From Methanococcus maripaludis (GTDB lineage: Archaea; AGJL01; Methanococci; Methanococcales; Methanococcaceae): a stretch of DNA of 64,000 nt. This document shows positions 26,444 to 28,760 of the stretch, piece after piece (within the stretch, counting starts at the first letter, position 1; each line of letters opens with the position of its first letter). The translations under genes were made by a program, and so were the position numbers. Under the pieces are notes generated by a model. The model was not told the DNA's origin, searched no databases, and worked only from the letters and a program-made list of their open reading frames with translations. The stretch covers positions 62,001 through 126,000 of the forward strand of contig NZ_JACDUL010000003.1 in assembly GCF_013760955.1 (NCBI RefSeq), read 5' to 3'.

Positions 26444-27628
26444 ATGGACAAAATGTATCTTTCAGATGATATTTTAAATTTTGAAGAATTTATAGTAAAT
26501 GCGTCCAAAAGATTAAATATTGACGAAGATACCTTAAAAAATGGATTCAGTAGAAAATTAATTACCAAATATGAATATAACGAAAAAAAATATCTGTGTT
26601 TTAAAAAGAAGTTGAAACATATAGAACGGGGAACTATTCTTTTTTTAAATAATAATTTAGATTTTATCCAGGGTTATCCAAAAATAAGGCGTGCCATGGT
26701 TCTTGAATCATCTGTTGAAAAATATTTTGATGGTAAAATTGCAGTAGAAGAAAAATTAGACGGATATAATATTAGAATCGTAAAATTTTACGGTGAAACT
26801 ATTGCAATTACCCGTGGCGGAAAAATCTGCCCTTTCACAACCAAAAAAGTGAAAAAATACATAAATACAAAATTTTTAGACGATTTTCCTGAATTAATGC
26901 TCTGTGGTGAAATGGTTGGATTAAATAACCCTTATGTTAGCCATTACTATCCTGAAGCCGATAAAAATCATGAAAACCTCGGATTTTATATTTTCGATAT
27001 AAGGGATAAGGAAACCAATACTGCCCTTTCAATTTATGAAAAGGAAAGAATCCTGGATGAATATAATATTTCTTATGTAAAACCGATAAAAATCATCGAT
27101 AGTTCAGATTTTGAAGAATTATGGAATATTTTAAACAGTTTAAATGAAAATCATAGAGAAGGGGTTGTTTTAAAAGATCCTGAAATGTTAAAAAACCCGA
27201 TAAAATATACCACCCACAACACACAGTGCGGAGACCTTTCAGTTGCATTCAGCTATGTTTACGACCTTGGAATTGATTTTATGTTTAGCAGACTTGTAAG
27301 AGAAGGCTATCAATCCTTTGAAAAATGTGAAAGCGAAGAAGAAATGAAAAAACGTGCACATGATCTTGGAGAATCTATTTTGATCCCGATGGTTGAAACC
27401 ATAACAGAAATTTCAAAAGAGGGCCTTGCAAAAGAATGTTTCGAGCTTTGTTTTGATTCGGAGAAAGATTTTGAAGAATTTATAAACTACCTTAAAACGA
27501 TGCACATAAATTTTGCAATTGAAAGCAAAGAATATATTAAAAAAGATGTATTTAAATCCAAAATTTGTAGAATCTACAATTCAACGTCAGATAAGATTAA
27601 AAGCCATCTTGAGGGCAATTTATGGTAA
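26444..27628 (+). CDS. ATP-dependent RNA ligase, archaeal Rnl3 family
   Basis: 394 aa. Covalent nucleotidyl-transferase motif I is VEEKLDGYNIRI (lysine near residue 105). Motif Ia/III follow in TRGGKICPFTTKK and LMLCGEMVG, then FYIFDIRD, EGVVLKDPE (motif IV) and IKYTTH (motif V). The extra C-terminal domain of about 120 residues (from FSYVYDLGIDFMFSRLVREG) is the dimerisation domain seen in Pyrococcus Pab1020 and Methanothermobacter MTH1221. The family joins or circularises RNA ends in vitro. No strong SD is visible; it probably depends on the upstream PHP gene 5 nt away. Confidence 0.93.
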   Translation: MDKMYLSDDILNFEEFIVNASKRLNIDEDTLKNGFSRKLITKYEYNEKKYLCFKKKLKHIERGTILFLNNNLDFIQGYPKIRRAMVLESSVEKYFDGKIAVEEKLDGYNIRIVKFYGETIAITRGGKICPFTTKKVKKYINTKFLDDFPELMLCGEMVGLNNPYVSHYYPEADKNHENLGFYIFDIRDKETNTALSIYEKERILDEYNISYVKPIKIIDSSDFEELWNILNSLNENHREGVVLKDPEMLKNPIKYTTHNTQCGDLSVAFSYVYDLGIDFMFSRLVREGYQSFEKCESEEEMKKRAHDLGESILIPMVETITEISKEGLAKECFELCFDSEKDFEEFINYLKTMHINFAIESKEYIKKDVFKSKICRIYNSTSDKIKSHLEGNLW

Positions 27629-27668
27629 TCTAACTCATTTAATTTCATTTTTTGAGCATTAGAAAAGG

Positions 27669-27680
27669 TTAAATACATAG
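27669..27680 (+). promoter_or_regulatory. TATA box of the candidate structured RNA
   Basis: TTAAATACATAG, whose centre is about 25 nt before the hairpin that begins the predicted RNA at 27698. The spacing is what a Methanococcus stable-RNA promoter would have. Confidence 0.5.
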
Positions 27681-27697
27681 ATACGATATTGAAACAT

Positions 27698-27807
27698 GTC
27701 CTTAGGGACACTCCATGTGAATAATTGTGGTCGTGTGGGGCATATCTTTAATTGTGGTTGGGGAACCTAAAAGGTATATGCCCCCCGATAAAAAGACTGG
27801 CTTTTTT
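27698..27807 (+). ncRNA. Candidate structured non-coding RNA, about 110 nt
   Basis: A GC-rich island in a 440-nt AT-rich gap. It opens with a tight hairpin GTCC-TTA-GGGAC, then a long stem GGGGCATAT/ATATGCCCC (27737-27745 with 27776-27784) extended by CTTT/AAAG across a 2-nt bulge and capped by GGTT-GGGG-AACC. The decamer TAATTGTGGT occurs twice (about 27722 and 27750). It ends in AAAAAG-ACTGG-CTTTTTT, a terminator-like fold with a T-run. There is no open frame with an SD. No known family (tRNA, SRP, RNase P, H/ACA) fits. Confidence 0.55.
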
Positions 27808-28067
27808 AAAATCGAATTGGAAAAATTTAAAGACTGTTTTTATGAAATTTAAAAAATCGAGATTTTTTACAAAACATTTAACTATAAATGATAAATTTTG
27901 AATCCCTGTTATGTCGGGCATTAAATTATTATACTTTAAGAGATTATCTATCTTATAGATTACTCAACGAATATTATTTTTTAAATTCCAGATAATTACC
28001 CATTAATATAACTTTAATTAAATTTTTACAGTATTTTAATGATTTCAATAGTATCTTGGGGGAGACT
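27808..28067. other. AT-rich leader region before the twin membrane genes
   Basis: No conserved structure seen. A 35-codon frame opens at 27888 but lacks an SD. TATA-like tracts near 28005-28020 could start the transcript of the first small membrane gene. Confidence 0.4.
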
Positions 28068-28301
28068 ATGAAATTTAAAAAATATTTAAAGGCATACTTC
28101 AAAAAAGATGTATCTTGCATTTTATTTTCAGGCGTTATAGCCCTGTTTTTAATTGCATCAATTCTCAGGATTAATTATTCATCATTTTGCGACCTGAGCC
28201 CATTTTTTATCAATACGATTCCTAACATCGAAACATGGCTTGGAATGCTCATGTCAGTGTTGTTTTTGGGGGCCATATATACAGAATGTATCTTAAAATA
28301 A
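28068..28301 (+). CDS. Small two-helix membrane protein, tandem paralogue A
   Basis: 77 aa from the ATG at 28068, preceded by GGGGGAG, one of the strongest SDs in the window; the frame's earlier ATG at 28056 overlaps the SD. A basic N-terminus (KFKKYLKAYFKKD), two hydrophobic helices (about residues 16-36 and 55-73) and a polar link containing Asn-Pro-like turns. It aligns throughout with the next gene (KKYxxxD-S-xxLF, RI-Y-S, IPxxE). Function unknown; I do not recognise a family. Confidence 0.8.
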   Translation: MKFKKYLKAYFKKDVSCILFSGVIALFLIASILRINYSSFCDLSPFFINTIPNIETWLGMLMSVLFLGAIYTECILK

Positions 28302-28660: not shown

Positions 28661-28760
28661 TTAAAAACACTCGATGATGATTGTCATCCCTGCTGATTTT
28701 AATTTGTGGTATTAGTTGCAAATTTAAGAAATGATGAATACAGGGTTACTGAGAGTTGCT
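28661..28760 (+). ncRNA. Candidate C/D box guide sRNA
   Basis: Box C ATGATGA (28674-28680), a 12-nt guide, box D' CTGA (28693-28696), box C' ATGATGA (28731-28737), an 11-nt guide, box D CTGA (28749-28752). The ends pair as ACTC/GAGT (28669-28672 with 28753-28756), giving the stem of a kink-turn. The 11-12 nt guide spacings are those of archaeal 2'-O-methylation guides. The D'-C' spacer of 34 nt is longer than usual. CCCTG of one guide can also pair with CAGGG of the other. The rRNA or tRNA targets were not identified. Confidence 0.55.

What the first reader, a model, noticed from the sequence alone, without database searches (positions are those of the whole stretch)
27698..27807. Compact structured RNA of unknown class upstream of two tandem membrane genes
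A GC-rich 110-nt island in AT-rich DNA with its own TATA box 25 nt upstream, a 5' hairpin, a long bulged stem with a GGGG loop, a repeated TAATTGTGGT decamer and a terminator-like 3' end. It fits none of the RNA families I can recall. It may be a free sRNA, or the separate regulator of the downstream membrane genes.
Basis: partly seen in the sequence, partly recalled or inferred. Interest (0 to 1): 0.6.

Follow-up and report, generated by a model that had tools for sequence, protein, structure and literature searches.

The report
Archaeal antisense RNA for formate genes
A roughly 110-letter RNA gene in a methane-making archaeon appears to carry a near-perfect mirror of the start region of the cell's formate-uptake gene, so it probably switches formate use off by covering the spot where ribosomes start.

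Summary
It has no Rfam match. The downstream membrane genes are not part of it: one relative has only one of them, another has none. Nucleotides 27711-27740 are antisense to the leader and Shine-Dalgarno of fdhC, the formate transporter at the head of an fdhC-cab-fdhA-fdhB cluster on another contig (28 pairs, one bulge, one mismatch). The same stretch also pairs with the leader of a second fdhA operon. Predicted duplex energies are -49 and -43 to -45 kcal/mol, against a best background value of -30.5. The 13-nt part lying over the fdhC ribosome site occurs only twice (up to one mismatch) in each of the three genomes: in this RNA and at fdhC. All 30 antisense positions are invariant while the flanks vary by 43-67%. 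Best explanation: a trans-acting antisense RNA that represses formate uptake and oxidation, working like M. mazei sRNA162. No transcript or regulation was shown. Part of the pairing site is an older fdh/selenium-binding-protein promoter element, so a DNA-operator origin remains a rival.

The parts
27663..27676 (+). BRE/TATA-like promoter (AAAAGG TTAAATAC)
   Evidence: About 25 nt upstream of the RNA 5' end; 22% of columns vary in this block, against 43-45% on either side, in the 3-genome alignment
27698..27807 (+). Candidate sRNA gene, about 110 nt (5' end inferred from TATA spacing, 3' end from the U-tract)
   Evidence: Conserved in G000, G001 and G004 only; model R1 finds 3 of 36 Methanococcales genomes, E<=6e-33
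27698..27709 (+). 5' hairpin GTCC-TTAG-GGAC
   Evidence: Folds in all three; C-G to U-G change in G004 keeps the pair
27711..27740 (+). Antisense region to fdhC leader and second fdhA leader
   Evidence: 0 of 30 columns vary; blastn E about 1e-5 to fdhC leader, opposite strand; duplex -49.3 / -44.6 kcal/mol
27711..27723 (+). 13-nt seed CTCCATGTGAATA facing the Shine-Dalgarno (GGAG) of fdhC; lies outside the older promoter element
   Evidence: Complement occurs (<=1 mismatch) only in this RNA and at fdhC in each of the 3 genomes; mostly unpaired in predicted folds of G001 and G004, weakly paired in G000
27725..27740 (+). Reverse complement of the conserved leader core CCCCACAAGACCACAA, with one change (CTTG to CGTG)
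27737..27745 (+). 5' arm of main stem GGGGCATAT
   Evidence: Consensus fold
27749..27758 (+). Second copy of TAATTGTGGT, in the apical region (first copy 27722-27731)
   Evidence: apical region 27750-27772 has 1 of 23 columns varying
27756..27767 (+). Apical hairpin GGTT-GGGG-AACC
   Evidence: Invariant in the three genomes, consensus fold
27776..27784 (+). 3' arm of main stem ATATGCCCC
   Evidence: Consensus fold
27797..27807 (+). CTGGCTTTTTT, U-tract 3' end
   Evidence: Invariant in the three genomes; U-tracts are the M. maripaludis terminator signal (PMC8716108)

Best explanation
The locus encodes a trans-acting antisense sRNA of about 110 nt. Its largely unstructured segment (27711-27740) base-pairs with the short 5' leader of the fdhC mRNA, over about 28 pairs from the conserved leader core into the Shine-Dalgarno, and so blocks ribosome loading on the first cistron of fdhC-(DUF)-cab-fdhA-fdhB. 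The same segment pairs with the leader of a second fdhA operon. The RNA would thus coordinate repression of formate uptake and oxidation. SHOWN: the RNA gene anatomy, its conservation, the antisense match and its genomic uniqueness. INFERRED: transcription, binding in vivo, repression as the outcome, and the inducing signal (H2 sufficiency or selenium shortage are the obvious candidates).
For: Own promoter and U-tract end, conserved while flanks diverge, and kept where the downstream genes are absent. Antisense to fdhC leader plus SD in all three genomes with the same 1-nt bulge and 1 mismatch. Duplex -49.3 (fdhC) and -43.4 to -44.6 (fdhA2) kcal/mol, against 6370 background windows: mean -14.6, sd 3.6, best -30.5. 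Net gain after unfolding both partners is -21 to -26 kcal/mol. The 13-nt SD-facing seed is found only in the RNA and at fdhC in each RNA-bearing genome and not at fdhC in the 4 RNA-less genus genomes. The stretch shared by the fdhC and fdhA2 leaders ends where complementarity to the RNA ends. 30/30 antisense columns invariant against 43-67% variable flanks. Archaeal precedent: sRNA162 of M. mazei uses a single-stranded linker to mask an RBS (PMC3510493).
Against: No transcript evidence. The RNA is in only three close relatives, so there is no covariation, either inside the RNA (0 compensatory pairs) or between RNA and target. 16 of the 30 nt belong to an older leader/promoter element shared by fdh and selenium-binding-protein genes, so part of the match could reflect common descent from that element. 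In the second fdhA leader the pairing lies 111-191 nt upstream of the start codon, so simple RBS masking would not apply there. The inner part of the antisense region is partly paired in the predicted RNA fold.
Confidence: 0.72

Rival explanations
1. DNA operator copy: 27725-27740 is a copy of a transcription-factor site of the fdh/selenium-binding-protein regulon. It controls the promoter here, and the antisense match is a by-product.
For: The core CCCCACAAGACCACAA sits near the inferred start site of fdhC leaders across Methanococcales and, in reversed orientation, at sbp leaders, which is typical of an operator.
Against: The copy lacks the TGTG arm found at 13 nt in nearly every leader and has a change at an otherwise almost invariant base. 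As a 29-bp site it scores 9.6 against 39.6-48.4 for leaders and a chance best of 10.5 in the window. It sits about 28 nt into the RNA rather than at the start site. It does not explain the 13-nt extension matching the fdhC SD.
Confidence: 0.13
2. sRNA that works mainly by another route (protein binding or other mRNAs through the invariant GGTT-GGGG-AACC apical region), with fdhC as a side target.
For: The apical region is almost as conserved as the antisense region (1 of 23 columns varies) and repeats TAATTGTGGT.
Against: No convincing second target for the apical region: matches to its complement in the own genome are few and close to the reversed control. The loop repeat can itself pair with the same ACCACAAU of the fdh leaders.
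Confidence: 0.08
3. Cis-acting leader or independent regulator of the downstream membrane genes.
For: Same strand, genes beginning about 260 and 530 nt downstream.
Against: Conserved U-tract end in between; one membrane gene in G001 and none in G004, yet the RNA is kept.
Confidence: 0.02
4. Decayed inverted duplication of the fdhC leader with no function.
For: Sequence relation to the fdhC leader; restricted to one clade.
Against: Zero changes in 30 nt across three genomes whose flanks differ at 43-67% of columns, plus a conserved promoter, hairpin and U-tract.
Confidence: 0.05

Closest known systems
sRNA162 of Methanosarcina mazei (PMC3510493)
   Same: Archaeal methanogen sRNA; unstructured single-stranded segment pairs with a trans-encoded mRNA and masks its RBS; has two functional domains
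   Different: Not in the same family by any test here (no Rfam match); the target there is a regulator mRNA (MM2441), and pairing here is longer and over a 5' leader of a formate gene; here nothing has been tested at the bench
sRNA154 of Methanosarcina mazei (nitrogen regulation)
   Same: Stand-alone methanogen sRNA acting on metabolic mRNAs
   Different: PMC9765008 states there are no sRNA154 homologues in Methanococcales; different target pathway and a stabilising role
RyhB-type bacterial trans-encoded antisense sRNAs (from own knowledge)
   Same: Own promoter and terminator, pairing at RBS, several targets of one pathway
   Different: Domain Archaea; no Hfq-dependence known; longer near-continuous complementarity

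Membership tests
Trans-encoded antisense sRNA | Stand-alone gene with its own promoter and terminator | tested here: met
   Conserved TATA and U-tract; kept when neighbours change
Trans-encoded antisense sRNA | Encoded away from its target | tested here: met
   RNA on G000:C3, fdhC on G000:C1
Trans-encoded antisense sRNA | Complementarity to target RBS/5' UTR beyond chance | tested here: met
Trans-encoded antisense sRNA | Pairing supported by compensatory changes between RNA and target | tested here: inconclusive
   Both sides invariant in the three genomes available
Trans-encoded antisense sRNA | Transcript exists and changes target expression | not testable with these tools
   No expression data held; the ncRNA termination table of PMC8716108 exists as a supplement but could not be opened
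Any Rfam family | Match at gathering score | tested here: not met
   No match at 27600-28100; permissive hits are chance-like, E >= 0.45
Cis-acting leader / riboswitch of the membrane genes | Linked to the downstream gene in relatives | tested here: not met
   Gene absent in G004, one of two in G001
fdh/sbp promoter-element (operator) site | TGTG-N9-CCCCACAAGACCACAA at the start site | tested here: not met
   Only the 16-nt core, one changed base, no TGTG arm

The most novel reading that the evidence does not exclude
One conserved element does double duty: in Methanococcales it is a promoter element of the formate/selenium genes, and its transcribed copies also form an RNA-RNA control layer. 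In several genera the selenium-binding-protein leader carries the reverse complement of the fdhC leader; in the M. maripaludis-like clade a dedicated sRNA took over that role and extended the pairing to the ribosome site. A third, sense-like copy in G000 could even be a sponge for the sRNA.
Probability: 0.13. Interest if true: 0.8.

Novelty: new member of a known kind. Interest (0 to 1): 0.62.

Why it matters
Very few archaeal sRNAs have a firm target, and I found none described in Methanococcus in the library searched. This candidate comes with a named target, a pairing site and ready compensatory mutations, in a genus with working genetics (M. maripaludis). It would give a post-transcriptional handle on the control of formate use: fdh is raised by H2 limitation (PMC3600222), and fdhC and the selenium-binding-protein mRNA fall on selenium depletion while Fdh genes do not (PMC11097638).

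Tried and rejected
Rfam at gathering and permissive thresholds: nothing. Target for the second TAATTGTGGT/apical copy: only near-control-level matches in the own genome. RNA model R1 across 36 Methanococcales genomes: only the three known copies; two weak hits (E 0.05 and 0.31) lack most of the antisense segment and were dropped. A clade-specific equivalent in G003 (own fdhC leader against own genome): none clear. Scans of the named genome collection with exact patterns returned nothing, possibly because near records are left out, so species names are not given. Minus-strand transcript considered: TATA and U-tract are oriented for the plus strand, so rejected.

Full report
WHAT IS THERE. Folding alone is only mildly unusual (z -1.84). 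No Rfam family matches.

HOMOLOGUES. blastn over 41 genomes found the island in the own genome and two others of the genus, G001 (92%) and G004 (89%). A covariance model from the three, run on 36 genomes of the order, found only these with confidence. G003 has the upstream RNA ligase gene, but I saw no copy downstream of it. In the three-way alignment 43% of columns vary upstream of the promoter and 67% downstream of the U-tract, against 22% in the promoter block, 17% in the 5' hairpin, 0 of 30 in the antisense region, 1 of 23 in the apical region and 0 of 11 at the 3' end. Downstream, G000 has two membrane ORFs, G001 one and G004 none. The RNA is therefore independent of them.

THE PARTNER. 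The same blastn search returned a second place in each of the three genomes: positions 27711-27740 match, on the opposite strand, the leader of a formate transporter gene. Pfam gives Formate/nitrite transporter, E 8e-34. The gene heads a cluster with a DUF gene, a carbonic-anhydrase-like gene, fdhA with an in-frame UGA, and fdhB, and is preceded by a selenium-binding-protein gene (TIGR03884, E 2e-41; Pfam SeleniumBinding; PDB 2jz7). The names cab, fdhB and this fdhA are my reading of the translations, not a profile match. The leader reads CCCCACAAGACCACAATATTCACATGGAGGTAATATC-ATG; the RNA reads CTCCATGTGAATAATTGTGGTCGTGTGGGG. That is 28 pairs with a 1-nt bulge and a G/A mismatch, covering GGAG of the Shine-Dalgarno. 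The same RNA segment pairs with the leader of a second fdhA gene (best profile TIGR01591 over its first 110 residues) in all three genomes.

IS IT MORE THAN CHANCE. Duplex energy of the segment is -49.3 kcal/mol for fdhC and -43.4 to -44.6 for the second fdhA; the best of 6370 background windows is -30.5 (mean -14.6, sd 3.6). Joint folding gives a net -21 to -26 kcal/mol after both partners unfold. With the whole 110-nt RNA the contrast is weaker, because its GC-rich arms pair with much (fdhC -53 to -56, best background -55.4); the specificity lies in the 30-nt segment. The 13-nt SD-facing part, with one mismatch allowed, occurs exactly twice in each of the three genomes, in the RNA and at fdhC, and not at fdhC in the four RNA-less genomes of the genus. 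The similarity between the fdhC and second fdhA leaders spans query 15-42, almost the same stretch (15-43) that is complementary to the RNA.

THE OLDER ELEMENT. The core CCCCACAAGACCACAA is not confined to these genomes. It opens fdhC leaders in many Methanococcales genomes; the reversed control pattern gave no hits at one mismatch. It also occurs in reverse orientation at selenium-binding-protein leaders of four genomes. With an upstream TGTG it looks like a DNA operator at the start site. The copy in the RNA keeps the 16-nt core but lacks the TGTG arm, has one changed base, and scores at background as a full site (9.6; leaders 39.6-48.4). Because the match extends 13 nt past the element into the fdhC ribosome site, I prefer RNA pairing over an operator copy, but I cannot exclude that the RNA arose from such an element.

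MECHANISM. By analogy with M. mazei sRNA162, whose single-stranded linker masks an RBS (PMC3510493), the most likely action is repression of fdhC translation. At the second fdhA the site is 111-191 nt from the start codon, so another step (mRNA stability, leader read-through) would be needed. The signal is unknown. In the literature searched, fdh is raised by H2 limitation (PMC3600222), and fdhC and the selenium-binding-protein gene fall about 2.4-2.7 log2 on selenium depletion while Fdh genes do not (PMC11097638), a difference that a dedicated RNA could contribute to. No paper on this RNA or on the leader element turned up.

LIMITS. No expression data; three close genomes; no compensatory change inside the RNA or between RNA and target. 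The existence of an RNA gene I rate at about 0.85, fdhC repression by pairing at about 0.7.

Noticed in passing
L025, L026, L036-L041, L045-L049 (fdhC, second fdhA and selenium-binding-protein leaders): A TGTG-N9-CCCCACAAGACCACAA element lies at the inferred start site of fdhC leaders across Methanococcales and, reversed, at selenium-binding-protein leaders; a likely operator of a formate/selenium regulon, with no description found.
   Followed up: partly
L097:1145-1165 (G000:C2:328144-328164): A 21-nt sense-like copy of the fdhC leader (20/21) in an intergenic stretch, with a TATA-like box before it and a T-rich tract after it; complementary to the RNA (-35.4 kcal/mol). Possible sponge RNA or relic; this locus was not found in the relatives.
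   Followed up: partly
window 28670-28758 (+): Looks like a C/D-box guide RNA (TGATGA...CTGA...ATGATGA...CTGA), weak Rfam resemblance to sR55 (26 bits, below gathering 35), and a similar stretch is present in L010 (G003) downstream of the same ligase gene.
   Followed up: partly
L048, L049, L042: leader of second fdhA: A conserved A/T hairpin (TTTTTGAG...CTCAAAAA followed by T-rich sequence) follows the element in the long leader; could be an attenuator or processing signal.
   Followed up: no
L004-L006, about 50-100 nt upstream of the inferred fdhC start site, opposite strand: AAAGGTTAAATAC, the promoter-like block of the RNA, also occurs (exactly or nearly) on the reverse strand upstream of fdhC; possible divergent promoter.
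   Followed up: no
L009, downstream of the RNA in G004: The membrane genes are replaced by a repeat-rich, mobile-looking stretch behind the RNA's U-tract.
   Followed up: no
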